NCBI GenBank assembly: GCA_019188255.1
Contig: JAETXT010000016.1
Span: 310,001 to 374,000 of the forward strand
Source of the DNA: Verticillium longisporum
Taxonomy: Eukaryota > Ascomycota > Sordariomycetes > Glomerellales > Plectosphaerellaceae
Direction: 5' to 3'
DNA length: 64,000 nucleotides
Positions 5,729 to 61,149 of the stretch are shown here, piece by piece; positions within the stretch are counted from its first letter, which is position 1; each line of letters opens with the position of its first letter. The notes under the pieces are model-generated. The model searched no databases and was not told the origin of the DNA. It was given only the letters and a program-made list of their open reading frames with translations. The position numbers and the translations under genes were made by a program.

Positions 5729-8640
5729 ATGGCAGAGGTGCTCGGCGTCGTAGCCAGCGCCATTGCGGTCGTCGACATCTCGGCTAAAGTGCTCAACTTT
5801 TGCGGCCAGTATCTCCGATATGTGAAGAACGCGAAATCCGACATCGAGATCGTCGAGAAAGAAGTCGCGGGTTTCCAGACCACGACATACAACCTCCAGG
5901 TACTGCTCAAAGGGCCTCGTGGGAAAGCGCTTGAAGCGTCACGGGACTTGTACGACGCAATCAACGATGCGCGTTCGACACTCGCGGCCCTGGCCCAAAA
6001 CCTTACGCCTTCGAAAAGCCGTGAAGCGATAAGCCGTGTTGGGTTACGGGCACTCAAATGGCCGTTCAAAAGCAATGAGGTTGATGAAATCATACATCGT
6101 CTGGTACGCTGCAGGGGCATTATTTTGCTGGCGCTGAATGTCGATCAGATGTGAGTCTTCCGGCCCCAGTGATGGCGAGGCTAACGTCGAGTCCACCTAG
6201 TGTCTTGATCCAGAATGTCGACCATAACATCGTTCTTGACAAGCTTCCCGTCGCAGAAAGTGCATCATTTGACTCCCACGCCCAAGAGCACAGCCCGACA
6301 TGCTTGCCGAACACCCGAGTTGAGCTGCTCAAGCACATCTTCCGGTGGGTCGAGGATCCCAACTCGAAGACAATATTCTGGCTGAACGGCATGGCAGGGA
6401 CGGGAAAGTCGACAATATCGCGGACTGTGGCTTACGGGAGGTCTGGCATTGGCGATCTTGGTGCTAGCTTCTTCTTCAAGAGAGGCGAGGCGGATCGGGG
6501 CAATCTCACCAAGTTAATGACCACTCTCGCGCATCAGCTGGCCTTGAGAGTACCCGGCGTCGCACATCATATCAAAGACGCAGTCGATGCGGATCCAGGT
6601 ATCTGCGGGAAGACGGTCAGGGAGCAGTTTGAGAAGCTTGTCAATAATCCCTTGTCGAAAGCGTTCGAGGCGACATCAGGTCCAAGCCGGGCCGTCATCG
6701 TGATCGATGCGTTGGACGAGTGCGAGCGGGACGAGGATATCCGGCTGCTGACCAGGCTTCTCTCACACACAACCACGCTGCGATCTCGCCTGCGGGTCCT
6801 CGTGACGAGTAGGCCGGAGCTTCCGATCCGGCTCGGGTTCAGCCAAGTCAGAGACGCCTATCAGGACTTGATCCTACATGACATCCCCTCACATTTTGTG
6901 GATCAGGACATATACACGTTTCTGGCCAGCGAGTTCGACCACATCCGGAATGACTTCAATAGTGACCCGGCAAACGACGGAGAGCAAATCCCACCCTGCT
7001 GGTCAGGACGTGAGACATTGCGAGAACTGACCCGAATGGCAGTGCCCTTGTTCATTTTCGCGGCTACCCTTTGTCGTTTCATCAAGGATTCCAATTGCGG
7101 CAGCCCGTTGAACCAGTTACGCAAGGTCCAGGATCATCACAGCAACAGCCATGTTCCCAGCTCGATCGCACTTATAAACCTGTTCTGGTGTCACAGCTGA
7201 ACGAACGGCAGTCGAAGAGGGATAAGGACCGAATCATTAAGGACTTCAAGATTGTCGTTGGCACGATCGTTACGCTCGCCAACCCTTTGCCCATTAAGCC
7301 CCTTTCGCGGTTGATTGATACCGACCCTGATGTTGTCAAGACCAGATTGAGAACGATGCATTCAGTCCTGAACGTTCCTTCGAACGACTTACCGGTGCGG
7401 CTCTTTCACCTGTCATTCCGAGACTACCTCGTGGACCCTGACCAGAAGGAGACGAATGTGTTCTGGGTGGATCAAAGAGCAGCGAACCAGACTCTAGCCA
7501 GGAACTGCCTCCGCGTGATGGCTGCTGGGCTCCGAGAGAACATATGTAACATGTCGTACCCGGGGATGCGCCGATCCGCAGTCGACTCGCAGTGTATCGA
7601 CGAGGCCCTACCGCCGGAAGTACAATATGCCTGCCGCTTCTGGGCGTACCATTGGACCGCGGCCGAGTTCAGGAAGGACGATGGGCTGGCAGTGTATGGT
7701 CTCCTCAAGGAGCATTTACTGCACTGGCTAGAAGCGATGAGCCTTATGGGCTGTGCGCGGGAAGTCATTGGCATACTACGACTGACGGCGTCGTGGATTG
7801 AGGTAGGTTCGGCTTGAACGTGTTCAGGTGGATTTTCTAACTTGAGTGCTGTAGGAAAGGGATTGCCAGCCGTTGTCTAGCTTCCTCGTGGATGCGGTCC
7901 GATTCGTGAAGGCGAGCTTCTCGGCGATTGATGAGACTCCCCTTCAAGTTTACTCCTCAGCACTAGTATTTGCTCCAAGCAGGAGCATTATTCGGTCGAC
8001 GTTTGAGAAATATATTCCCGACTGGCTGTCCGTCGGGCCCCAGGGGAAGGAGAACTGGGCTGCGTGTCTCGCAGTGCTGGAGGGCCACGCCAGTAACGTC
8101 AGCTCGGTGGTATTCTCGCACGACTCGAAGACGGTGGCATCGGCCTCTCATGACGAGACGGTGCGGATCTGGGATGCTGAGTCTGGCGATTGCATGTGGG
8201 TTCTGAAGGGCCATGATCTTTCGGTGACCTCAGTGGTATTCTCGCACGACTCGAAGACGGTGGCATCGGCCTCTCATGACGAGACGGTGCGGATCTGGGA
8301 CGCTGAGTCTGGCGATTGCGTGCAGGTTATTCAAACGGGGCCTTCCCCGCTCACCCTTCGTTTCACAGCTGATGATAGTGGTGTCATCACCAACACTGGC
8401 GTCATACCCGTCACTCGAAAGTCTTGCACAGCTGCCATCAAGCCGCCGTCGTCCGCAGCTCTAAGGCTAGCCCTGCGAGACTCCTCGTGGATTACGGTAG
8501 GAAAACAGGACTGGCTTTGGCTCCCCGCCGAGTGTCGTGGCAGCAAATCGGCAGTCTCAGGAAGAACAGTTGTGATAGGTTGCCAATCAGGGAGGATGGT
8601 GATTCTGGGGATCTCTGAGAGTAAAGCGTTCCGATGTTAG
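5729..8640 (+). pseudogene. NACHT-WD40 NOD-like receptor (STAND), one frameshift
   Basis: Exons 5729-6150, 6201-7802 and 7855-8640; introns 6151-6200 (GTGAGT..CTAAC..CTAG) and 7803-7854 (GTAGGT..CTAAC..GTAG). The ATG sits at the start of a fungal STAND N-terminal domain (MAEVLGVVASAIAVVDISAKVL.., about 140 residues). A NACHT module follows with P-loop GMAGTGKST (about 6390), Walker B VIVIDALDECE (about 6700) and the winged-helix-like HSVLNVPSNDLPVRLFHLSF region, then the conserved linker SYPGMRRSAVDSQ..LPPEVQYACRFW. The C-terminus has two near-identical WD40 repeats and a degenerate WD-like end. Family members act as regulated molecular switches for incompatibility or cell death. One base is gained or lost near 7150: the frame leaves at NQLRKVQ.. 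and resumes at SQLDRTYKPVL. It is therefore a pseudogene unless this is a sequence error. Two clear repeats are few; relatives often have 7-14. Confidence 0.85.
8077..8328 (+). repeat. Tandem WD40 repeats, 126-bp unit
   Basis: Two consecutive 42-codon WD40 repeats inside the NLR gene. The stretch 8107-8197 recurs at 8233-8323 with only about two visible differences at the DNA level. This marks a recent duplication or gene conversion. Confidence 0.9.
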
Positions 8641-15553: not shown

Positions 15554-15558
15554 ATTCT

Positions 15559-15588
15559 TGTCACCACGGAATTGAACAAAGTGGATTG
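15559..15588 (-). repeat. Element A left LTR, outer 30 bp
   Basis: First 30 bp of the split LTR (TGTCACCACGG..GGATTG). It ends with GATTG, the target duplicated by the solo-LTR insertion. Confidence 0.9.
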
Positions 15589-15781
15589 TGTTGCCGATCA
15601 GGCAAGGTTCTGTTCTGTGACCCAGGAGTACTTTCATCCCAAATGTGGAGTCCTCATTTGATGCATTTGTTCTGTCGTTATCGCCCCGGTAAGACTCCTT
15701 ACCGATGCTGGATCTGACCAATTACCTTCGTTTGGACTTCTGGAAGTCTCCTTTTGTACCTTAACAACAATCAATCCACTT

Positions 15782-16007
15782 TGTCGGATTGATGCTTGGA
15801 TCCGCTTTTAAGCGTGTCTGAAATCGGGTTTATTGAATATTTCTCCATTCTGCCGCAGGGCGGTGAAGGAGTGGGGTTAAGTTTGTCACTCGACAGAACC
15901 AGTACAAAACAAGGATCAACCAAGTTACAACCATCAAGAGGTCCTTTTAATATGAGGACTCGGCCAGAAGTGACGAATACGATACATGAGGCATCGAGTA
16001 TCTGACA
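15782..16007 (+). repeat. Element B 5' LTR (226 bp)
   Basis: Starts TGTCGGA and ends TCTGACA; identical by eye to the 3' LTR. Confidence 0.93.
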
Positions 16008-16027
16008 ATTAAGAGTCTCATACGCTC
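16008..16027 (+). promoter_or_regulatory. Element B primer-binding site, tRNA-Lys(CUU) half-tRNA type
   Basis: Directly follows the LTR's CA. Its complement ends ATGAGACTCTTAAT, the anticodon arm of tRNA-Lys(CUU) as known in eukaryotes, with the match ending at tRNA nucleotide 39. This is the geometry of copia/Ty5 half-tRNA priming. The tRNA match is from memory. Confidence 0.65.
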
Positions 16028-16057
16028 ACGAGCCGCTGCGCCGGACGACGATACGCG

Positions 16058-17323
16058 ATGCCGAACGATCCGACCGCGAAAGCCTTACTTCGGACCTTCG
16101 AAGACTGGGGCAGGTGGGATGAAGAGTTCCAGACAAAGGCCACAAGTCTTCATCAATGGGAATATATCGACCCAGACAGTGAACAGAGCCTGCTGGAGAA
16201 GCCCCAACGACCGGAGTTCTCCAAGTATGCGAGGAGGGTTCCTGCCCGCTCCACAGAACCGGACGCCAATTCGGGGTTGCGGGGCCGAAGGAGTGGACAG
16301 TCCAGCCAGACAATCAGCCAACAGTCTTCTGAACCCATCGTATCTCTGCCGGAGACGACCGACCCACACCAGAGAGCTCGAAACATCGCTGAGCTTACCG
16401 CGGAGGACAAGGTCTCCTTTCAATTCGAATGGAGAGTCTACGAACAAGATTACAAGGAATACAAAGAGCAGGAGACCAACTGCGAGAAGCTGAAGGCCTG
16501 GGTTATTGAGACGGTTGACTACGGTCTGCGGCAGAGTTCCTGTCGACCACAATGGGATCTACGGAGGTGGTACCTCAACTTGAAGACAAGCGTGGGCACT
16601 ACCGACAGAGAACAACAAACTGCCGCACGCCGGAAGTATCAAGAGGCTACAAGCATCTTGACTAAAGCGCCCAAAGACTTTGCCAACTGGATCACCACGT
16701 GGGAGATAGCCACCAGCCATGCACTGGTGTGGAAAACTGGAGGTGTCGAAGACCCCAACACTTGGTTCGACGACCTTACCAAGGCCATTCGGCCCATTCT
16801 CGGCCATTGGGTCACAATCTACAGGGGCATTTACAAGGACAAGCTCGAAGACAAGACTCTGTCGATCGGAGAGGTTGCCAAGGACCTTCGAACGGAGGCT
16901 GAGCAGCAGAATCTTCTCCACCCACAAGAAAAACGTCCCAAGATCGTCAGAGGCTCCTTTGGCCCGACATTTGCTGGTGAATCATCAGTTGGGTCAGGAA
17001 CGGGCGTCCAAGACGAAAACATCACCTCACGCCCGCAAGAAGAAGAGAGAACGGCCCGCAAGCGGAAGGCGCAAGACACTCTGACAACAACACGACGAAC
17101 TAGAGCCGCGACCTCTAACCGGGGCGATGCTGCCTGTCGAGCGTGCGATGGCAGACACGACTTGGGCAACTGCTACTACATCTTCCCGACCAAGGCGCCG
17201 GAGGTCTTCAGGGAACGGAAGGTGATTCGAGAAGCAGTCGACAGCCGTCTACGGACAGACAAAAGTCTGAAAGATGACGTGAACCGTCTAAAGAAGGTTA
17301 ACCAACTGGAAGAAGCCGAATGA
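16058..17323 (+). CDS. gag: Element B Gag
   Basis: ORF of 421 residues starting at an ATG 50 bp past the LTR. It is largely helical and charged, as in copia Gag proteins, with a long middle domain (KLKAWVIETVDYGLRQ.., WYLNLKTSVG.., FANWITTWEIATSHALV). A basic region (about 345-365) precedes a compact zinc knuckle CRACDGRHDLGNC (about 373-385). Gag forms the particle that packages element RNA. It ends at TGA followed by C (17321-17323). The same reading frame stays open beyond this stop and carries the protease, so Gag and Pol are separated only by one possibly leaky stop codon. Confidence 0.85.
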   Translation: MPNDPTAKALLRTFEDWGRWDEEFQTKATSLHQWEYIDPDSEQSLLEKPQRPEFSKYARRVPARSTEPDANSGLRGRRSGQSSQTISQQSSEPIVSLPETTDPHQRARNIAELTAEDKVSFQFEWRVYEQDYKEYKEQETNCEKLKAWVIETVDYGLRQSSCRPQWDLRRWYLNLKTSVGTTDREQQTAARRKYQEATSILTKAPKDFANWITTWEIATSHALVWKTGGVEDPNTWFDDLTKAIRPILGHWVTIYRGIYKDKLEDKTLSIGEVAKDLRTEAEQQNLLHPQEKRPKIVRGSFGPTFAGESSVGSGTGVQDENITSRPQEEERTARKRKAQDTLTTTRRTRAATSNRGDAACRACDGRHDLGNCYYIFPTKAPEVFRERKVIREAVDSRLRTDKSLKDDVNRLKKVNQLEEAE

Positions 17324-20300
17324 CTCGGGAGGGGTGTTGGACAATGCACTGCCAGCTTTGTGGTCGCTGCTCTCAACGCTGCATTTTCCATCACCCAGTA
17401 CCCGCTCAAGAACTCGGCCATTCTCGATTCAGGTTCGACCATTCACATCTTCAACAACAACAATCGTTTCACGAGGTTTCAGCAGGCAGAAGAAGGAGAC
17501 TATGTCTTTGCGGGGAAAAGGAGAGTTCCCATCCGTGGATATGGGATCGTGGACATCCAGACTCGAGGGCCCAAGGGACCGAAGGTCATCAGACTGTGCG
17601 ATGTGGCTCTCTGCGAAAACTTCCCTGCAACCTTGTTTCGTTACGTCAACTGCACAAACGCGGATATTGGTGGGATAACCGCCCAAGGCAGAACTGTCTC
17701 CGAGACCGGAATCATGCGATCGTTTCCAGACTGGCGGTTCGTCATGATCAGTTTGTCATCGAAGACATACCTCTGGGATGCCCTGACAGCGCATTCGTTA
17801 CCCGACGACACCGAGCGGATTCTTGGTCAGAGCGTACTTCCAAAGCTGATGCCCGGAAGTGGCACTTGCGACTTGGCCATCCTGGACCGCGGGCCCTTGA
17901 ACATCTAGCGAACACCTCCAGGGGTGCGAGAGTCAAGGGAACAACGACCGTGGAATGCGACGGTTGCGCACTCTCCAAGATGACACGACAAGTCAGTCGC
18001 CGACCAAGGAAACTTGGCCATGCGCCCGGCGACCGACTAGCCATCGACTTTCATGATGTGACCAGGGATCAGGAGGGCCAACGCAGTGTCATGCTCGTCA
18101 CCGATCGCTGGTCGGGAATGATCTGGGACTACTACCTCACAGACAGAAGGACGGAAGTCCTGACTGCGGCAATCAAGGACCTGCTTGGCGTCCTGAAGCG
18201 GCAGTATGAGCTGGCCCCCAAGGTCATTGAATGCGACAATGAGATCATGAAGCACAGTCTCACCACCATTGCATTCCTCCGCACGCTTCATATCAAGGTC
18301 GAACCATCAGCGCCGTATACACCTGCCCAGAATGGGAGTGCCGAGGTGTCTGGAAGCATCATTAAGACGAAGGCCAGAGCGATGCGCGTTGGCGCCAGAC
18401 TGCCGGAACACCTGTGGGTTGAGATATACCGAGCCGCTGTCTACCTCCACAACCGGACTCCGAAGTACATCTACAGCTGGCGGACTCCATACGATGGATT
18501 TCACACATTCCTGGCACACAGGGACGGAGTTGTCGTGGAGAACCGCAAGCCATACCAAGCACACCTCCGCGTCTATGGGTGCAAGGCTTATGCCATGACC
18601 CGGGAAGCGCAACTAGGTACACAAAAGAAACAGACTCAACCCCAAGGCATGGATTGGGTTTCTCGTGGGATACCGATCCACGAACATATACCGAATCTGG
18701 AATCCACATACTGGCAGGATCATATCTACGAGGGACGTCATCTTCAATGAAGACGAACTCTTCAATGGGGATTTGAACCAGCTCAAGGATGATTTGCTCC
18801 ACATCAGTCAGCAAGACTTGATCCATCTACTCGATAGGGTAGACCAGCCTGAACCAGACCGTGCCACCGAGGCAGTAGAAGTGCCTGACGGTGCCTTTCT
18901 ACCCCAACGAACTTGGGAGGGCCTTCCTGGAGAGGACGAAGACGTTGAACCCCAGGAGAACTGGGAGGACTTCGCCGTTCAGGAAGCGGAAGGGGACACA
19001 GAAGCTGAACCGTCAGAGGCTGCGTCTGATCAACCAGCCAGGACTGGCGAGCGCTTTGGGTCAACCGGGGATGCGGAAATCGCACTGGGACTACCAGAGG
19101 GCGGCACGGAGAGCCAGGTTACGGCCGGCACCGATGACCAAGCCAAGAACTCTGACGCCCGGGCTAGAGAATACGCTACCCCTGTGTCACTTCCACCGGC
19201 AGCACTCCTGTCTTTGGTGATGCGGAACGGCTCGGATGATCTGCCTGAGGAGAGATTAACGATCTACAGAAACGCCGGACCAATTGAGGTGTGGAAAGCT
19301 GCCTTTGCTGCTGGACGTCTGGCCAATCCACTCGGCGCGATAGACGGAGAACAGATCGACAAGGCCAAGTGGCTTCGACTGCTACGAAATCCCAGGACGC
19401 TCCACAGGCGACAGATGCCTCCACTACCCAAGCACCATGGAGACTTGGCAACACATCCCATGAAAACAATGTTTGAGGAGGCGGAAGCAGCACACCTGCG
19501 CAGCCACGAAGAAATGAACTCATGGGCGGAGATTTCCAAACATGACCTTCGAGTGCGAGGCTATCAGATCCTTGACTGCATGTGGGTTTACGTGTACAAG
19601 TTTGACAAACACGGACAGTTCCAGAAGTGCAAAGCACGCCTGGTGGTCAGAGGAGACCAACAACGTAAGTCGACTCACGAAGAGACATACGCAGCGACCC
19701 TAGCAGGGCGCTCCTTTCGGACACTCATGGCAGTCGCGGCGCGCTTCGACCTGGAACTGATCCAGTATGACGCCGTCAACGCGTTTGTGAACGCCAAGTT
19801 GGACAAGAACGTCTTCATGCGCATGCCACCAGGGCACCGGAAACCAGGAATGATCCTGATGCTCCGGAAAGCGCTCTATGGGCTGAGAGAGTCTCCACTA
19901 CTGTGGCAGAGGGAACTCACAGCTACACTGACCGAACTCGGATTCAAACCCGTTCCTCATGAGACCTGCTGCATGACCAAGGGCGGTGTCATTATCTTCT
20001 TTTATGTCGACGACATTGTCCTGGCATACCGAAAGCAGAGGGAGGACGAGGTTGAGCGCATCACACGAGCGCTGCAAGCTAAGTACAAATTGACAGGAGG
20101 AACACCATTGCAATGGTTCCTCGGCGTTGAAATCATCAGAGACAGAGAGAACAAGCTCCTCTGGCTCTCCCAATCCGATTACCTTGACAAGATTGCTAAC
20201 CTCATTGACCGCACAGATTTGCGGCACGATGTTCCGATGAAACAGGAAGAACTCCTGCCACATGATGAACTCGCAAGCTGTGGGTCAATCCGAAGCTACC

Positions 20301-21046
20301 AGCGAAAGATCGGCTCAATACTGTACGCTGCGGTCATCACACGACCAGACGTGGCATTCGCCGCTTCGCGACTTGCGCGACATAACTCAAACCCAGGACC
20401 CGAGCATCATACTGCAGCTGACCAGGTGCTGCTGTATCTAAGGAAAACAAAGACGATGGCGTTACAGTTCGGCGGAGACGATGTTTTCACAATGGCAAGC
20501 GACGCATCCTTCGCAGACAATACTCTTGACCGAAAGAGCTCCCAAGCTTACGCCATGACCTTGTTTGGCGGCACAATCGGCTGGAGAGCCAATAAACAAT
20601 CAACGGTCACCACGTCTACTACCGAAGCGGAGCTCCTTGCCCTCTCACAGGCAGCCAAGGAAGCGATGTTCGTCTCTAGACTCATCAAGGAGCTCGGGGT
20701 TACCTTGGACGATGAACGCATCCGAATAAGATGTGACAACCAACAGACGATCAAACTGGTCAACAAAGACATCGCCACATTGCGGACCAAACTTCGACAC
20801 GTCGACATACACAACCACTGGTTGAGGCAGGAAGCACAGAAGAACAGGATCCTGGTGGAATATATCCCGACGGCAAACATGATCGCCGATGGACTTACGA
20901 AGCCCCTGAATCATCAACGCCTCCAGATTTTCACGGCACAGATTGGACTCATCGATATCTCAGATCGACTGGAGGGAAGGCTACTCCGGCCCATCGAGAA
21001 ACAGGAACTTTGGGAAAGAATGGAAGAGCTGGAGATCGGAGACTGA
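17324..21046 (+). pseudogene. pol: Element B Pol (protease, integrase, RT, RNase H) with two frameshifts
   Basis: Pol is spread over three segments. Protease (ILDSGSTIHIF, about 17420-17455) is in the Gag frame until about 17845. Integrase, with its zinc-binding part WHLRLGHPG..CDGCALSK and DDE core (LAIDFHD, VIECDNE, PYTPAQNGSAE), is in the next frame to about 18640. The rest (18665-21046, 793 residues) returns to the Gag frame with TNIYRIWNP, reverse transcriptase (LIQYDAVNAFVNA, ALYGLRESPLLW, FFYVDDIVL) and RNase H (ASDASFADN, STTEAELLALS, CDNQQTIKL, RHVDIHNHWL). The two breaks are compensating one-base shifts at homopolymer-rich sites (near CCAAAGC and CACAAAAGAAAC). They are either damage, assembly error or, less likely, programmed shifts. 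Confidence 0.85.
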
Positions 21047-21080
21047 CAGTTTCCACCTGCGAGGCCTCAACTGGGGGGTG

Positions 21081-21306
21081 TGTCGGATTGATGCTTGGAT
21101 CCGCTTTTAAGCGTGTCTGAAATCGGGTTTATTGAATATTTCTCCATTCTGCCGCAGGGCGGTGAAGGAGTGGGGTTAAGTTTGTCACTCGACAGAACCA
21201 GTACAAAACAAGGATCAACCAAGTTACAACCATCAAGAGGTCCTTTTAATATGAGGACTCGGCCAGAAGTGACGAATACGATACATGAGGCATCGAGTAT
21301 CTGACA
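21081..21306 (+). repeat. Element B 3' LTR (226 bp)
   Basis: Preceded by CTGGGGGGTG (polypurine-like). Identical by eye to the 5' LTR. Confidence 0.93.
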
Positions 21307-21336
21307 CACTTTGTTCAATTCCGTGGTGACAGATTG

Positions 21337-21519
21337 ATTGTTGTTAAGGTACAAAAGGAGACTTCCAGAAGTCCAAACGAAGGTAATTGGTCAGATCCAG
21401 CATCGGTAAGGAGTCTTACCGGGGCGATAACGACAGAACAAATGCATCAAATGAGGACTCCACATTTGGGATGAAAGTACTCCTGGGTCACAGAACAGAA
21501 CCTTGCCTGATCGGCAACA
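21337..21519 (-). repeat. Element A left LTR, inner 183 bp
   Basis: Remainder of the split 3' LTR of element A, running from the second GATTG duplicate to ..CGGCAACA. Confidence 0.9.
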
Positions 21520-21723
21520 CACCCCTCAGATGGGTAGGCGAGCCTCTCTCTGACCATCTGAACCACGAAAGATCAGGCAGATGCCTGTTGGCGGCTTTTG
21601 GTAGAGAATTTGGTGCCTTTGGAACAGTTGGCGTTCTCAGGGCAGATGAAGGAAATCGTGCTTGTGAAGCAAATAAGGATGTGTGTAAGTGTTAGGAGAG
21701 GTGGGCGAAATTGAGCAAGCTGT

Positions 21724-24700
21724 TCACTGGTGGACCGCTGGTACGCACTCCATCTGCAGAAGCTTCACGAAGTTCTGATGCTTCTGAGTCGGGAGAATCT
21801 TTGTAAGCCCATCGCTCACTATCTTGTCAGTGCTCATCCAGTCCACGGATATCTTCCCCTGTCTGACTGTTTGTCGGATCCAAAGACGATGGATGTCAAC
21901 ATGCTTGAGCTTCGTAGTGGCTTGAGGCCTCTCACTAGTGAGTAACAGCAGCGTTTGGCGGTTATCACAGAACATCTGGATCGGAACCTTGCCATGAAAA
22001 CGTAGCTGAAGCTCCTTGATCAGACGAAGAGTGGCAAGGTAGTTCCTCGCTGCGACACTGAGGGCCACCAGCTCAGCTTCGGTGCTAGAAGTGACCACGG
22101 ATCGCTGCTTTGTAGCTTTCCAGTCAATTGGACCTCCAAAGAGCATGGTGGTGTATCCTTGTGAACTAAATCTGGTGATGGGATCATCGCCGAATGATGC
22201 GTCGCTCGCACAATACAGCGATGTAGAATGGTCTCCTGATCCTCCGTAGGACAGCGAGAGAGTCCTTGTGCGATAGAGGTAGCGGAGACAGTGGTCTGCT
22301 GCAAGGTGATGGAGTTCTGTCGGCCTGAGCAGAGACTCCGCAAGTCTTGAGGCAGCTTTGGCCACATCAGGTCGTGTTGTGGTTGCTGCGTAATTGATGG
22401 AACCAATTTTGCGTTGGTATAGTTGAATGGATTCAGCAGAGGCTTCGTAATCCTTTGGAGCAGGTGCTGGGTCTGTTGATAGAGGCGTCAAATGACCTCT
22501 GGTGGATGGCTGGAGGTTGAGGTCCTTCATCTTTTCAGTGATGTAGTTCTCCAGAGACAGCCAGAGCTTGCGCTGGCTACGATCTCTGACCACTCTGATG
22601 CCTAAGAACCATCTGACCTCGCCAAGTTCTCGCATCTCGAACAGAGACTTGAGCTGGCTCTTCAGCTCTTCGGCCGCTTGGCGATCCTCTTTGCGGTTCA
22701 TGAGGATGATGTCGTCAACGTAGAAGAACATGATCATGCCTCTGCCCATGAAGACACAGTTATCTTCCTCGAGAGCCACGAGGCCGATCTTCCGCATAGC
22801 CTCGGACAGCAGCTTGTGCCAGAGAAGCGGTGATCGGCGCAAACCGTACAAAGCTCTCTTCAGCTTGAAAATCGTGCGCCTCTGTGGAGCGCCCTTCTTC
22901 TGTTGCATCTCCTGCATGAGATCCCAGCCCTGAGGGGCCCAGACGTAGACTGTCTCGTCGAGGTGTGCATTTGGAAAGGCGTTGACGGCATCCAACTGGT
23001 GCGTGTCTAGGTCAAACTCTGCACAGATGGCCATCAACGTTCTGAACGTCTTGGCTGCCAGTGTCGACGCGTATGTTTCCATCTCATTCTTGGGCTGTTG
23101 GTCTCCTCGTACGCAGAGCCTGGCCTTGAACTTGGTCACGTAGCCGGTGGAGTCAACCTTGTATTTCCAGACCCAGGTCAACCCGAGAACCTTGTGTATT
23201 TCCTGGTCGACCGATTCGAAGGGGACTTGCTCGATTGTGTCCATATTTTCAATGGTGTTGACCTCCTGGACGCTTGCTTCTAGCCACTGCTTTTTGTGAT
23301 CAGAATGAAGCATCTCCTTCCAGGATCTTGGCTCCGCGGGCATATCTGTTCGGAGAAGCGGTTTCTTGTTCGATGGAGTCTGAGTGTGAAAGAATGAGTA
23401 TTCCACGGTCAAATGTGATGATGGAGGCATTTTCTTGCTGCGGCGGGCTCCTAGAGCCTGGTCGGTGGGGGTGCCGTCTTTGAACTGTGACGGCTTTCTG
23501 TCTCTAGCGCTCCTTCGAGTGCCTTGGATTTGTGTTGATGGCGACGGCTGTGGGGCTGGTGCCACTGATGGTCGGGCCTCCACAGTCTCTGTCTCGTCTT
23601 CAGCTGAACTTTGATCAGCTGGTGTGTGTTGAGGTGTTGATTCAGGGCTCCGAGCTACTTCGATAGTGTCTTCAATAGCCTCTTCAGTCACTTGAATGGT
23701 GTCTGGCACGGGGATCGTGTCTTCCACAGCATCTTCAGCCCCTTGAATGGTGTCTATTACGGCATCTTCCACCCCCTCAGAGACAGCTGGCTGGCCTTGT
23801 CCAGTCTCCGTCTCTGGAGTTGGACGTGGTGACGGCAGGACATCATCTCTGCTGGCTGTGTGACCTTCCCGGGGTCGCAGTATCTCCGCGTTGATCTTTC
23901 CTCCAAGTTGGAATGTCCGGGCTTTCTCGAACAGGTCGATGGTGGCAACATCGAACTCGTCAATGTCCAGTGACGAGTTGAAAGGATTCTGGGCGTCCGC
24001 AACGGGCACGTCCAAAGCCTGGAATTCGTCCTGTAGAATTGGCTTTGGGGATTGGGCGTCCTTGAAAACTGTGGACTCATCGAAACCCACGTCTCTTGTC
24101 CTCAATACTGCTTTCATCTCTGGAACCCAGATTCTGTATATGTTGCTGCTGTCGTATCCACAGAGATAGCCGATGTGGGCTCTCGGAGCCAGCTTCTGCT
24201 TTCGGTTACGTCCCTCTTGGGCGTCTGCCGTGAGAGGATACGCCCTGCATCCGTATCTTCGCAGGTGAGCCAGGCCTGGAGCCGTAGTTCGAGCGGCAAG
24301 GCCCTTGGAGTTGAGCCAGTCGTTCAGCCTTCCTTCTGGTGTCGCCCACTGTAGGCGTCCCTTCGGCGTGAGATTGTGGAGATATGCAGCGGTTTGTACC
24401 ACCTCTGGCCACAAATCCTCCGGGAACCCAGCAGCCGAGGTAAGGGTTCTTGCGATGGTGAATATCGTGCCTCCATTGCGTTCTGCGGCACCGTTCTGTT
24501 CTGGTGTCCTTGCGGCTGATCTCTCCAAGAGAATGCCGCGCTCTTCTGACCAAGTAACCAGATTGCTGCGTAGTGCTGAGTCCCAGTCAACTCTCAGGAC
24601 CTTGATGACCAGATGGTACTGTCTCCAGAGAAACATCTCAAAGTTGATAAACGCCTGGAAGCCATCTGCTCTGGCAGGCAGAATCCTGACAACAATCTTC

Positions 24701-26589
24701 CCCGAATATGCGTCCGTTATTACAAGGCACGACTCCATGCCGTTGTACGACTTCCCAGGGCTGAAGAAGTCCAGGTTGACGCGCTCAAATGGATTCGTCG
24801 TCGTGTACGTTGGCTGTCTCCGAGATACAATCTTCTTGGATTTCGCTACCCCGCAAGACTCGCATTCGAATGTTGTTGGCCCTTTCACCCCAACTCCAGT
24901 ACAGCTGTATGGCAGCTGCTGTATGGCCTCTGGGTGGGCATGAGCCAGCCGTTCGTGCCAGAGCCTCGAGTCGCTGACCATCGCGGCTCTCTGCTTCTTG
25001 GAGTGATAGAAGGAAGTGGTGCTATGTAGGGTGTTCACCGCATACTGGCCACCCTTCTCCTGAAGTGGGATCTCTGAGCCAGTGGCTGGGTTGAACAGCA
25101 TGTTCCTGAGCGAGTCCAGTCCGAGTCCTTGGCGTTGGAGCTGCCTGGCTGAAATAAGCGTCGTCGGGTAGTCTTTGATGTACGAGACATCATGGCAGGT
25201 GATGCTGATGACGTTCTGCTTGCTGTCGAGGGTGTCGATGGCCATCGTGCCATGCCCTTCGACGGGGCTTGATTTGCCTCCTCCTGTGCTGTATCTTACA
25301 GTGTCGGTGGCCTCGCGAAAGTTGGTGAGGAGGTCTTTGTTGTTGGTTATATGGTTGGGTGTACCCGAGTCGATCAGGAACTCGTGACGGAGATCCCCTC
25401 CTCGGTTTGTCCGTTGAAACTCGTCCGAATCAGCGACGGAGAAGTTGCTCATGAAGTTGGTGTACTCGTCATCGCAGCTCTGTTCATCATCGTCACCGAG
25501 GAAGTTGTTAAAAGCAGAGACGGCGACTCCACTGGTGCCTCTTGCCTCCTGCCGCTTCTTTTTGTCCTCCTTGATTTTCTCGTTCCAGAATTGCAATGTG
25601 CTTGGCTTCATCCTTTTCTTCGCTTCGTCAATGTAGTCCAGCAGGCTCTGATCGGATTGATAGCTCTTCTTCCTCCGGTGTTCTGCGATATTTGGGCACA
25701 GACAGATGGGCTGACACGCCTTGGGTGCCCTCTTCTGCTGTACACAGTCGCAGAATGGTCTGCGAGAAGGCGAGCTGTTTGGCTGTTGAGGAGAGTCACG
25801 ATGGGAATCCTGGGCACTCGTCCGATCACTTTGACCATTCCGGTCCTTGCCCATGAAGGTCACCGAGTCGCTGTAGAAGGACGTCTGAGATGGCTTGGTG
25901 GTGAGGCGATGCGGTTGGTAGTCTCTAAGGTAGCTCTTGTACCTCAACGCCAGTACCTTCCCTCCATCACGATCATCCAGCTCCCGGCGAACTTGGTGGG
26001 CGCACTCTGCTTCGGCCCACCCTGGAGACACGGAAAGAATTGCCCGAAGGAATTGAACATTTTGATCTGCGGCTTCTTTAAGCTGAGGAATCCCGTGCTT
26101 CTCAACTTCGATACAGAGTAGGATGAAGTCGTCAACCCACTTCTCATGGTCCATCTTCTTGATCATCGCCATATGCTCCTCCCAGCGCTGGCGAATGTAT
26201 TGTTTCTGTCCCATGTCGGAAGGGGCGAAGTGGTCCTTCAACGCCTTGAGCCACTCCTGGCTGCTTTCCTCGTTCATGAAGACGGCCGAAAGGCTCCTGT
26301 CGACTGTGTTGAGGATGTATTTCTGGACCTCCTGGAGGCCCGCTGACTCCCTGTTGTAGATGTCCAAATGGATCTTGTACAACGTCAGCAGTGTGCTGAG
26401 ATCTCGCGTCTCATCTTCGAATGACGGTGCTGTTGGCTTCTTGGCCCTCTTGGGCCGTCTGTCAGCCTCTTTGTCTGGGTCGACTAGATCCCAGGCCTCG
26501 TAGGAGGTCGCCACGGCTCTGACGGAGTTGAGCCATGTCCTCCATTCCTCCCTCCTTGTAAGTGTCACTCTGTGCTTACCAGAGTCCAT
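21724..26589 (-). CDS. gag-pol: Element A Gag-Pol polyprotein, intact
   Basis: One uninterrupted ORF of 1621 residues from an ATG 376 bp inside the 5' LTR. Order of parts: Gag (1 to about 395) with an unusual Cys cluster (CDC..C..CLC..H, about 280-304) in place of a plain zinc knuckle; aspartic protease active site LIDSGTPNH (about 405-413); integrase zinc region WHERLAHAHP..CESCG (about 544-579) and catalytic residues D607 (VNLDFF), D668 (RVDWD) and E703 (NGAAERNG); an acidic Thr/Ser/Glu-rich linker with repeated DTI motifs (about 940-980); reverse transcriptase (QLDAVNAF about 1198-1205, ALYGLRRSPLLW, FFYVDD to about 1292); RNase H (CASDASFGDD, SSTEAELVAL, CDNRQTLLLL, HVDIHRLW). All hallmark residues are present, so the element is plausibly autonomous and active. 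Confidence 0.93.
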   Translation of the reverse strand: MDSGKHRVTLTRREEWRTWLNSVRAVATSYEAWDLVDPDKEADRRPKRAKKPTAPSFEDETRDLSTLLTLYKIHLDIYNRESAGLQEVQKYILNTVDRSLSAVFMNEESSQEWLKALKDHFAPSDMGQKQYIRQRWEEHMAMIKKMDHEKWVDDFILLCIEVEKHGIPQLKEAADQNVQFLRAILSVSPGWAEAECAHQVRRELDDRDGGKVLALRYKSYLRDYQPHRLTTKPSQTSFYSDSVTFMGKDRNGQSDRTSAQDSHRDSPQQPNSSPSRRPFCDCVQQKRAPKACQPICLCPNIAEHRRKKSYQSDQSLLDYIDEAKKRMKPSTLQFWNEKIKEDKKKRQEARGTSGVAVSAFNNFLGDDDEQSCDDEYTNFMSNFSVADSDEFQRTNRGGDLRHEFLIDSGTPNHITNNKDLLTNFREATDTVRYSTGGGKSSPVEGHGTMAIDTLDSKQNVISITCHDVSYIKDYPTTLISARQLQRQGLGLDSLRNMLFNPATGSEIPLQEKGGQYAVNTLHSTTSFYHSKKQRAAMVSDSRLWHERLAHAHPEAIQQLPYSCTGVGVKGPTTFECESCGVAKSKKIVSRRQPTYTTTNPFERVNLDFFSPGKSYNGMESCLVITDAYSGKIVVRILPARADGFQAFINFEMFLWRQYHLVIKVLRVDWDSALRSNLVTWSEERGILLERSAARTPEQNGAAERNGGTIFTIARTLTSAAGFPEDLWPEVVQTAAYLHNLTPKGRLQWATPEGRLNDWLNSKGLAARTTAPGLAHLRRYGCRAYPLTADAQEGRNRKQKLAPRAHIGYLCGYDSSNIYRIWVPEMKAVLRTRDVGFDESTVFKDAQSPKPILQDEFQALDVPVADAQNPFNSSLDIDEFDVATIDLFEKARTFQLGGKINAEILRPREGHTASRDDVLPSPRPTPETETGQGQPAVSEGVEDAVIDTIQGAEDAVEDTIPVPDTIQVTEEAIEDTIEVARSPESTPQHTPADQSSAEDETETVEARPSVAPAPQPSPSTQIQGTRRSARDRKPSQFKDGTPTDQALGARRSKKMPPSSHLTVEYSFFHTQTPSNKKPLLRTDMPAEPRSWKEMLHSDHKKQWLEASVQEVNTIENMDTIEQVPFESVDQEIHKVLGLTWVWKYKVDSTGYVTKFKARLCVRGDQQPKNEMETYASTLAAKTFRTLMAICAEFDLDTHQLDAVNAFPNAHLDETVYVWAPQGWDLMQEMQQKKGAPQRRTIFKLKRALYGLRRSPLLWHKLLSEAMRKIGLVALEEDNCVFMGRGMIMFFYVDDIILMNRKEDRQAAEELKSQLKSLFEMRELGEVRWFLGIRVVRDRSQRKLWLSLENYITEKMKDLNLQPSTRGHLTPLSTDPAPAPKDYEASAESIQLYQRKIGSINYAATTTRPDVAKAASRLAESLLRPTELHHLAADHCLRYLYRTRTLSLSYGGSGDHSTSLYCASDASFGDDPITRFSSQGYTTMLFGGPIDWKATKQRSVVTSSTEAELVALSVAARNYLATLRLIKELQLRFHGKVPIQMFCDNRQTLLLLTSERPQATTKLKHVDIHRLWIRQTVRQGKISVDWMSTDKIVSDGLTKILPTQKHQNFVKLLQMECVPAVHQ

Positions 26590-26945
26590 CTTGAGGATCC
26601 CTGGGCGTTGTCGGAGACCGTCGGGGAGGTCGTTCGATGGTCGCGACTGATCGCGTGTATGTTGAATATCATCAATTGACCCCGCGTGTACTCAAGCCCT
26701 AGGCCACACGTCTCGGAGGTTCAATTGGTCTTGTGGAGCTGATTTCTCCTGCTTCGATGTGTCGTGGAGAGATGATCGCTCTCCTGGAGGATGTCGGTAA
26801 CGGCCCTTGGCCAGTGGTCGTCAATGGCGAAACGTCGCGTCAATTGACTGTTGAAGTGCAGCGGCGATTCAGCTGTAGACAGCTTCGCAGCAGGCGTATT
26901 GGCCGTAGGCGCCCTGCTGTAGATATCGAAGGTCAAGGAGCTGTA

Positions 26946-26965
26946 TCGTCGCCCGGGCTCATAAC
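26946..26965 (-). promoter_or_regulatory. Element A primer-binding site, initiator tRNA-Met half-tRNA type
   Basis: On the plus strand CCCGGGCTCATAAC abuts the LTR at 26966. CGGGCTCATAAC is the anticodon arm of initiator tRNA-Met up to nucleotide 39. This is the primer type described for Drosophila copia and yeast Ty5. The match is from memory of tRNA sequences. Confidence 0.7.
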
Positions 26966-27178
26966 TGTCACCACGGAATTGAACAAAGTGGATTGATTGT
27001 TGTTAAGGTACAAAAGGAGACTTCCAGAAGTCCAAACGAAGGTAATTGGTCAGATCCAGCATCGGTAAGGAGTCTTACCGGGGCGATAACGACAGAACAA
27101 ATGCATCAAATGAGGACTCCACATTTGGGATGAAAGTACTCCTGGGTCACAGAACAGAACCTTGCCTGATCGGCAACA
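26966..27178 (-). repeat. Element A right (5') LTR, 213 bp
   Basis: Complete LTR, identical by eye to the split left LTR and to the inverted solo LTR. Confidence 0.92.
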
Positions 27179-29184
27179 CGGGCCAGGTGTACCGAAGGTG
27201 GGGGTGCTCTACATCGACCTCTGCCGCCAAAGACCCTTATGGCTCGGTTGAGGACTGACCCCATAACAGACAAATCGTCCGACCATGTCACGTAGTACGA
27301 ATCACGGGTCAAAGCGGCTCGCAATCCGCAGATCGGTCATGGACATTGAACCAATGCGACATTCACTCAAGCTTCATCCTATTCCCCACTTCATCCCACC
27401 TCAGGATTGGTTGGGAAGGGTTCGAATGGAACTCCTACAAGCCGTCATGCCCGTAAGACACGTATGAGAAGCATACCGGTTGATGACCATGGAGCTTTTG
27501 AGAATTGAAAAGATCCTCCCCATGTCTCCACGCATCGGGGCTGCAAGTTCCATGTAAGGCACCGCCCGTGGCTGGTTGATCGGCTTCTCCCTCAACGCAG
27601 ATACTAATGCCATCGTCAAATGACGGGCACGAATCATTGAAGCTGGAAGTATTTGGATGCTCGAATGACAGTAGGGTTGGGGATTCGAAAGGGGCCGATT
27701 TGGTACGACAGGCGGCTCGGTATTCGCATGCGCGTCTGCGAGTTCTGGCAAGATATGATATATAACATCTAACACGACATACTTGTTGCTCGGAAGGATT
27801 GGCGGGTGGTGCCAACAACGTTGAGTTTCCTTCCATCGATATGAGAAGGTTTCTGTGCTCTTGCGGCATAGCATTCATTGTCATACAGGACACCGTCTGT
27901 GGTGAATTCCATGTTGCAGGAAAAACACGTCATTGACGCTGTAGCTCTCATTTTGTGACATCTCTTGTGACGATTTCTGGCATCGATGTTGGGCATCTTA
28001 CCACGATCCCATTTCATGGAAATATCACACTTACAGTTGACGGCTTGTGTAAAAGGGTTTGTCGCACTGTTCAAACGCAAATGCCGGCACCCCTTCGTGA
28101 ATCTTCGAGCGATCGTTCCTGTCGCTGTTATTAGACGACTCGTTGTCTCGACTCTATAGTAAAGAAAATCACACTTACAGCAACCGGTCCGATCTAAATC
28201 TTCGTTTGCAGCCCTCAGTTGGGCGTGTTGATGGGCTTTTTTGGTGCCTTCTTACATGAGCACTTCTATTTCCAACGTTGAACGACGTATCCAGTCAGTA
28301 TTGTCGCAGAATTAAACTCACAGAGCCTGTGTGGAAGCAAAGGCCCCCTCACATTCCTTGCCAGGGCATGATATGTTCCCGGACGACAACATTTTATTGG
28401 GGTCAATTCCACGAAAGAGGTGGGCAATTAATAGAACAGATAAGTCGAAGAGGGCCTGGAGGTAATCGCCACGCCGAGAAGTAGGGGAGAGGATGTCGGG
28501 AAGAAGACTAGATGCAGACGTTCAGGATGGCGACGCGACCTTAAGAAAACTATGCGGCGAACGCGACGGCACACAAAAGGGGGCCGCTGTACGTAGGCTG
28601 CTCGGCAGGCTGTTGGAACCGCCAGCACCTCACAATCTACACAAGGATAGACCCAACAGTGACGCACTCCACCGGGGCGCAGTGATCAAGTTCCGCGGCG
28701 AGCTGAGTCGCCAGACAACCAATCTCAGCATCCCTAGTCCTTCGCATTCGTCACTGGTCGAACACAGGCCTTTTTGAGAGCGAACGGCTCCGGGACCAGC
28801 TGCAGGATGCAGCGACCCATGCCTGTCCTGTCAGAGATGGTGCATCGGAACCTGGCATGCAGGGTACTCGGTCCCGCGGATCAGATCAACTCCAAAATTG
28901 GGGGTCAGCTCGATCACTGTACCAATCGGTCAGGACCCACTCCAACACAATGGCAGGAGAAAGACTTGCTCTGGTGTGAGCGTGGCAAGAACCTCCACGG
29001 GAACAGTCCCGGTCGCCTGCCGTGGTATTTCATCAATGCCCTTGCAGGAAGCGAAGGCGTGTTATGGCGCAGGCTTCGTGTATATGGTTCGCGCACCCCC
29101 GTGATCAGTGCGTCGTTGCCTTGCTTTCTAGACCTGCGCCTATCCTTGGCTACTTTTGTTCATGTTACCTCACCACGACGCATC
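27179..29184. other. No confident gene; two minus-strand frames
   Basis: Right flank of element A. The minus frames 27435-27893 and 27769-28080 overlap. The second is Cys/His-rich (CKCDISMKW, RHKRCHKM, CFSCNMEF, DNECYAAR), which could be part of a zinc-binding protein, but it has no family I know. Plus frames at 28493-28777 are basic and unrecognised. I would not call a gene. Confidence 0.35.
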
Positions 29185-60761: not shown

Positions 60762-61149
60762 ATTCAAGATAGTTCTGTGACGCTTCGAATGAAAGGGAGT
60801 GGGTAAGAAGACGTCGTGTGATGCGGAGGTCAAAGAGTTTAGGTGGCGACCGAGCAAAGGGTGCAACCGCGCGTTTCTATTCGGTCCGTAATTGGCTCAC
60901 CCGTCAGGCCAAGCGCGCGCCTAAAGCGCGACGCCAATTACTAGTGATGTGGGCGAATGCATGGTTCTACATTTAGGGAACTTGATGTGACAAGTGACAA
61001 GGCGCGCTTTGGCGGCTTCAAGTGATGGTTCTTTATAAGTACGTTGGGTTGCTTTCAAGGAAACAGTTTGTTTCCAACTCGCGGCCTCACAAACTTTTCT
61101 TGAAACAATATCCACCGTACGTACTTTGTCAATTTGGTGTGCAGAATAG
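60762..61149. other. Divergent intergenic region
   Basis: Shared 5' region of the 629-residue gene and the small Cys-rich ORF. No motif recognised. Confidence 0.45.

What the first reader, a model, noticed from the sequence alone, without database searches (positions are those of the whole stretch)
16008..26965. Both copia elements appear to use half-tRNA primers, from two different tRNAs
The PBS of B (16008-16027) is complementary to a sequence ending ATGAGACTCTTAAT (tRNA-Lys CUU anticodon arm). The PBS of A abuts CGGGCTCATAAC (initiator tRNA-Met anticodon arm). By my count both primers would end at tRNA nucleotide 39, which is how Drosophila copia and yeast Ty5 prime. Two unrelated copia lineages in one fungus with the same cut position but different tRNAs point to a general cellular source of 5' tRNA halves.
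Basis: partly seen in the sequence, partly recalled or inferred. Interest (0 to 1): 0.75.

Follow-up and report, generated by a model that had tools for sequence, protein, structure and literature searches.

The report
Two retrotransposons primed by half-tRNAs
Two young copia-type jumping genes nested together in a fungal chromosome each carry, right after their first end repeat, a 13-base site matching the cut middle of a transfer RNA (one lysine, one initiator methionine), a start-of-copying trick already known from fruit fly, yeast and other fungi.

Summary
Immediately inside the 5' LTR of element B (16008-16020, +) and of element A (26965-26953, -) lie 13 bases exactly complementary to nucleotides 39-27 of this genome's tRNA-Lys(CUU) and initiator tRNA-Met. 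Neither site has TGG in its first 40 bases, so a 3'-CCA primer is not supported. Of 127,938 window positions, 6 reach a 13-base anchored match to the 47 tRNA sequences collected; two are these sites. The LTR-PBS border is unchanged in 11 of 11 B places and 28 of 28 A places found. LTR ends are fixed by 5-bp target duplications.

Half-tRNA priming defines hemivirus-type copia elements. B's site begins with the published PBS of the fungal FunCo1 clade (ATTAAGAGTCT, internal tRNA-Lys), and one rust fungus is reported with copia elements using anticodon loops of four tRNAs. A and B are not unrelated: 42% identity over 535 aligned residues of RT-RNase H. A general cellular source of halves is untested; the stress nucleases in the review I consulted cut in the loop, not at 39/40. 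A distant RIP-mutated family here also has an initiator-Met-like half site, shifted by one base.

New member of a known kind.

The parts
15559..15583 (-). Outer 25 bp of the 3' LTR of element A, separated from the rest of that LTR by a nested insertion
   Evidence: inverted repeat I4, 100%; sequence
15589..15781 (+). First 193 bp of a solo LTR of the A family inserted into A's 3' LTR (TSD GATTG 15584-15588 / 21332-21336); interrupted by B
   Evidence: inverted repeats I1/I2, 100%; sequence
15777..15781 (+). Left target-site duplication of B, CACTT (right copy 21307-21311)
15782..16007 (+). 5' LTR of element B, TG...CA, 226 bp
   Evidence: direct repeat D1, 100% identical
16008..16020 (+). PBS of B: 13 nt complementary to tRNA-Lys(CUU) nt 39-27, abutting the LTR
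   Evidence: exact in the 11 B places found
16058..17323 (+). ORF 1 of B (421 aa), Gag position, no Pfam match
17320..18750 (+). ORF 2 of B: GAG-pre-integrase (30.4 bits, cut-off 28.4) and integrase core rve (28.0 bits, below its 32.6 cut-off)
18665..21046 (+). ORF 3 of B: RVT_2 reverse transcriptase and RNase H part
21081..21306 (+). 3' LTR of B, preceded by a G-rich polypurine tract
21312..21331 (+). Last 20 bp of the A-family solo LTR, after B
21332..21519 (-). Inner 188 bp of the 3' LTR of element A
   Evidence: direct repeat D2 with 26991-27179, 100%
21724..26589 (-). Gag-Pol ORF of A, 1621 aa: Pol_BBD, GAG-pre-integrase (27.2 bits, below its 28.4 cut-off), SH3, RVT_2
26953..26965 (-). 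PBS of A: 13 nt complementary to initiator tRNA-Met nt 39-27, abutting the LTR
   Evidence: exact in the 28 A places found and in family C
26966..27178 (-). 5' LTR of element A, 213 bp
   Evidence: the LTR end is confirmed by the solo LTR's TSD GATTG

Best explanation
A and B are recently inserted Ty1/copia retrotransposons of the hemivirus type. Minus-strand DNA synthesis starts from the 3'-OH of a cleaved host tRNA whose 5' half (to nt 39) anneals through its anticodon arm (nt 27-39) to the 13-nt PBS abutting the 5' LTR: tRNA-Lys(CUU) for B, initiator tRNA-Met for A. Shown: PBS position, exact 13-nt complementarity, absence of a CCA-type site, copia domains. Inferred from published relatives: that a half-tRNA with its end at 39 exists and is used. 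Most likely cleaver: a host tRNA-processing activity (RNase P is named for Ty5 in a review, and for copia in the title of a paper seen only in a reference list), with each element's PBS adapted to one tRNA.
For: 13-nt anchored matches for both. Among 39 tRNA halves folded against each PBS, the best duplexes are tRNA-Lys(CUU) for B (-27.3 kcal/mol for the common gene, -28.9 for one variant gene) and iMet for A (-30.3, next best -26.4). No TGG in 40 nt. Border exact in the 11 B places found, including one 94% identical over the searched 193 bases, and in the 28 A places found. Family C, with a diverged LTR, keeps the iMet site. Precedents: FunCo1 PBS, hemiviruses, Ty5, rust Copia, plant Osser and Bianca.
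Against: No RNA, strong-stop DNA or transposition data. Most copies of A and B are nearly identical, so conservation of the border is weak evidence of selection. Beyond the 13 bases there is no convincing extra pairing (B: 104 of 2000 shuffles as good; A: 1214 of 2000). The tRNA set is incomplete. The window copy of B has pol split over two overlapping frames, so this copy may not be autonomous.
Confidence: 0.9

Rival explanations
1. One reading: a general cellular pool of 5' tRNA halves ending at nt 39, made from many tRNAs, which unrelated copia lineages tap independently.
For: Same cut position with two tRNAs here; a RIP-mutated family (D), only 25-27% identical to A and B in RT, also has an iMet-like half site; rust Copia use anticodon loops of Tyr, Ile, Asp and iMet (PMC10886601).
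Against: A and B are 42% identical in RT-RNase H, so shared descent can explain the shared position. Stress halves arise by cuts in the loop in the review passages seen (PMC4307339). In family D the site starts one base after the LTR end, compatible with an end at nt 40 or a one-base spacer, so the position is not strictly fixed. D's low identity is partly due to RIP.
Confidence: 0.2
2. The cut is made or selected by the element: pairing of the PBS with the anticodon arm opens the tRNA and a particle-associated RNase trims it to the end of the hybrid.
For: In both A and B the complementarity spans exactly nt 27-39, and the primer end coincides with the LTR end.
Against: A full-length tRNA would have to be invaded from within; a review states that host RNase P makes the Ty5 end (PMC5371799). 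No direct test here.
Confidence: 0.15
3. Chance or a conventional PBS: the matches are accidental and priming uses a tRNA 3' end or a self-primer.
For: 13-base matches do occur by chance: 4 other places in this window, one of them fitting tRNA-Thr(AGU) nt 39-27 at 60937 with no LTR pair in the 9.9 kb around it.
Against: Two matches at exactly the two LTR ends, against 4 at the other 127,936 positions; no TGG; the same B-type PBS is published for a clade.
Confidence: 0.01

Closest known systems
FunCo1 clade of fungal Copia (Donnart et al. 2017, PMC5445492; passages read)
   Same: B's PBS begins with exactly the reported 11-mer ATTAAGAGTCT, described there as complementary to an internal region of tRNA-Lys; clade reported almost only from Pezizomycotina
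   Different: The passages read call it a 'classical' PBS and do not discuss half-tRNA cleavage; membership of B by RT phylogeny was not tested
Hemivirus-type Pseudoviridae: Drosophila copia, 1731, Ty5, Osser (PMC1181622, PMC5371799; passages read; the original copia and Ty5 papers were not read)
   Same: A's iMet anticodon-arm PBS abutting the 5' LTR; primer end at nt 39 (given as 40 in PMC1181622)
   Different: Host and sequence family
Puccinia hordei Copia elements and fungal Helenus TRIMs (PMC10886601; passages read)
   Same: Several copia elements in one fungus with PBSs to anticodon loops of different tRNAs (Tyr, Ile, Asp, iMet)
   Different: tRNA-Lys is not among those named in the passages read; a rust fungus; their tRNA genes are said to have introns, while the Lys(CUU) and iMet genes seen here have none
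Plant Osser, Bryco, part of Gymco-II (half tRNA-Met) and Bianca (half tRNA-Ile) (PMC6317226; passages read)
   Same: Half-tRNA PBS confined to Ty1/copia
   Different: Plant lineages

Membership tests
Ty1/copia (Pseudoviridae) | Integrase region ahead of RVT_2 reverse transcriptase, LTRs TG...CA, 5-bp TSD | tested here: met
   GAG-pre-integrase and SH3 matches ahead of RVT_2; LTRs; B TSD CACTT and A-family solo LTR TSD GATTG. Against: element A itself has no TSD at its outer ends, A gave no rve match at E<=0.001, and rve in B and GAG-pre-integrase in A are below their cut-offs
Hemivirus-type (half-tRNA primed) | PBS complementary to the anticodon arm, ending in the anticodon stem, next to the 5' LTR | tested here: met
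   13 of 13 nt for A and for B
Hemivirus-type (half-tRNA primed) | Primer is a tRNA 5' fragment with 3'-OH at nt 39/40 | not testable with these tools
   Needs RNA or strong-stop DNA
FunCo1 (for B) | PBS ATTAAGAGTCT | tested here: met
   16008-16018 identical
FunCo1 (for B) | RT places in the FunCo1 clade | not tested
   No reference sequence of the clade was at hand
Fungal GalEa | No PBS; palindromic conserved hairpin after the LTR; RT motifs KSRLVI and QTDD, RNase H motif CQPEA | tested here: not met
   A and B have a PBS and KARL, YVDD and TRPD, and none of KSRLV, QTDD, CQPEA (motifs)

The most novel reading that the evidence does not exclude
In this fungus an endogenous activity cuts many tRNAs between nt 39 and 40, and the resulting pool of 5' halves is the standard primer source for its copia elements: of five families whose LTR-PBS border I could read, A, B and C have exact half-tRNA sites, D one with a single RIP-type mismatch, E an unclear one, and none has TGG within 5 bases of the LTR (uninformative for D and E, where RIP would erase it); at least two tRNAs are in use.
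Probability: 0.18. Interest if true: 0.6.

Novelty: new member of a known kind. Interest (0 to 1): 0.27.

Why it matters
It gives a clean natural pair, in one genome and nested in one locus, of young copia elements using the same tRNA cut position on two different tRNAs. That makes the question of who cuts the tRNA (RNase P, another nuclease, or the element) testable by sequencing small RNAs and strong-stop DNA in one strain. It also lets the published FunCo1 'internal tRNA-Lys' PBS be read as a half-tRNA-Lys(CUU) PBS with its end at nt 39.

Tried and rejected
Looked for a better match to tRNA 3' ends with CCA added: none above 2 bases among the 47 sequences. Looked for a second block of pairing beyond the 13-mer (B: CGCTC to nt 22-26 after a 2-nt bulge): not convincing against shuffles. 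A 13-mer complementary to tRNA-Thr(AGU) nt 39-27 at 60937 looked like a third half-tRNA PBS; the 9.9 kb around it shows no LTR pair, so it is taken as chance. Family D could instead fit a tRNA-Ile(UAU) (anticodon TAT); a pattern search for such a gene gave 2 hits, neither called a tRNA; the pattern assumed a D-arm sequence, so this stays open. Two of the 37 genome hits of the Lys 13-mer are neither called tRNA genes nor B sites (C6, C15). The border searches also gave 6 (B) and 13 (A) hits with two mismatches, no more than the backward control (12 and 29 at up to two mismatches); they were not followed. Of 44 copia RT rows with stop codons, six stretches were read (L110-L115): one gave no LTR pair, three are family D, two are family E, whose site fits iMet at 10 of 12 positions by eye and at only 6 in a row. 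PDB gave no sequence relative of B's ORF 3. The search for homologous proteins and structure prediction were not used; no gypsy element was examined as a control.

Full report
Anatomy. Element B (+) has LTRs at 15782-16007 and 21081-21306, 226 of 226 identical, flanked by the 5-bp duplication CACTT. Element A (-) has its 5' LTR at 26966-27178. Its 3' LTR is split: 15559-15583 and 21332-21519. Between these lies a solo LTR of the A family on the + strand with duplication GATTG (15584-15588 and 21332-21336), and B sits inside that solo LTR. Both LTR borders next to the PBSs are therefore fixed by repeats and target duplications. The LTR pairs of A and B are identical, so both insertions look young. 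A has no duplication at its outer ends. Pfam gives GAG-pre-integrase and RVT_2 in both, in copia order, with two matches below cut-off (GAG-pre-integrase in A, rve in B) and no rve match in A.

PBS test. I gathered 87 tRNA genes (47 distinct mature sequences, 24 nominal isoacceptors; anticodon calls of intron-bearing genes are uncertain) from the same genome. The 13 bases after B's LTR are complementary to nt 39-27 of tRNA-Lys(CUU), and those after A's LTR to nt 39-27 of initiator tRNA-Met; in each the match starts with the 5' strand of the anticodon stem and ends one base past the loop. The Lys 13-mer occurs 37 times in the genome: 24 tRNA-Lys genes, 11 B sites (opposite strand) and 2 other places (one search compared). 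The Lys(CUU) and iMet genes seen have no intron. Neither PBS has TGG in 40 bases, and no tRNA 3' end in the set matches more than 2 bases. Over both strands of the window 6 of 127,938 positions reach an anchored match of 13; two are the PBSs, and the other four (39473+, 60937+, 45083-, 2023-) are not at the ends of the LTR pairs found.

Copies. The 16-mer over the LTR-PBS border of B is found exactly 11 times, at the 11 B places. The latter is family C, whose 230-bp LTR is related to but diverged from A's and whose RT end is 92% identical to A over 253 residues. Most copies of A and of B are nearly identical, so this shows consistency more than selection.

Beyond A and B. Six RIP-mutated copia stretches were read of 44 rows with stop codons. 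Three (L111, L112, L115) belong to a family D with LTRs of about 0.72 kb; after its LTR stands one base (G or A) and then GTTATAAGCC, which fits initiator tRNA-Met with one mismatch, a TpA where the tRNA complement has TpG. A pattern search found 9 such sites; all 9 have that A, and the preceding base is G in 7 and A in 2. These elements are almost stripped of CpA and TpG (RIP substrate index 0.12-0.42 against 1.25 for the window), so a RIP change is the simplest reading, but a tRNA-Ile(UAU) is not excluded. The extra G could pair with C40, so D may prime from nt 40 or have a one-base spacer. Two stretches (L113, L114) belong to a family E whose site fits iMet at 10 of 12 positions by eye; one stretch (L110) gave no LTR pair.

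Relation of A and B. Their RT-RNase H parts are 42% identical over 535 aligned positions, against 25-27% to D (D's value is lowered by RIP).

Literature (passages found by search within each paper). [quoted passage not shown] PMC1181622: hemiviruses (Ty5, Osser, 1731, copia) use half-tRNAs, 3'-OH at nt 40, and full- and half-tRNA users are not monophyletic. PMC5371799: Ty5 starts from an end made by RNase P in the anticodon loop. PMC10886601: Puccinia hordei Copia use anticodon loops of Tyr, Ile, Asp and iMet. PMC6317226: about 2% of plant LTR elements have half tRNA-Met or -Ile sites, all copia. PMC4307339: Rny1 and similar nucleases cut in the anticodon loop. In the held library I did not find FunCo1's PBS described as a half-tRNA-Lys(CUU) site ending at nt 39; that is a small interpretive step.

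Verdict. Real, correctly seen, and of a known kind. The new content is modest: exact 13-nt footprints ending at nt 39 for two tRNAs in one locus, measured against the host's own tRNAs, and a hint that a distant, RIP-mutated family in the same genome uses the same trick with a one-base shift.

Noticed in passing
15559-27178: Three-layer nest: A (-), an A-family solo LTR (+) inside A's 3' LTR (TSD GATTG), and B (+) inside that solo LTR (TSD CACTT).
   Followed up: yes
15554-15558 and 27179-27183: Element A has no target-site duplication at its outer ends (ATTCT vs CGGGC), suggesting recombination between copies.
   Followed up: partly
18665-18750: B's pol is split over two overlapping frames here. 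The RT-bearing open frame is 809 aa in this copy and three on C4, but 839-1241 aa in the six other B rows that carry most of the RT; copies with the shorter frame seem to have multiplied or been duplicated.
   Followed up: no
60937-60949: 13 bases complementary to tRNA-Thr(AGU) nt 39-27 with no LTR pair in the surrounding 9.9 kb; taken as chance.
   Followed up: yes
8074-8325: Tandem duplication of a 126-nt unit, 87% identical.
   Followed up: no
L108, L109: Two near-identical loci (C6, C15), not called as tRNAs, share the Lys anticodon-arm 13-mer inside a longer common sequence of unknown nature.
   Followed up: no
L111, L112, L115: RIP-mutated copia family D whose initiator-Met-like half-tRNA site starts one base after the LTR end; 9 similar sites by pattern.
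   Followed up: partly
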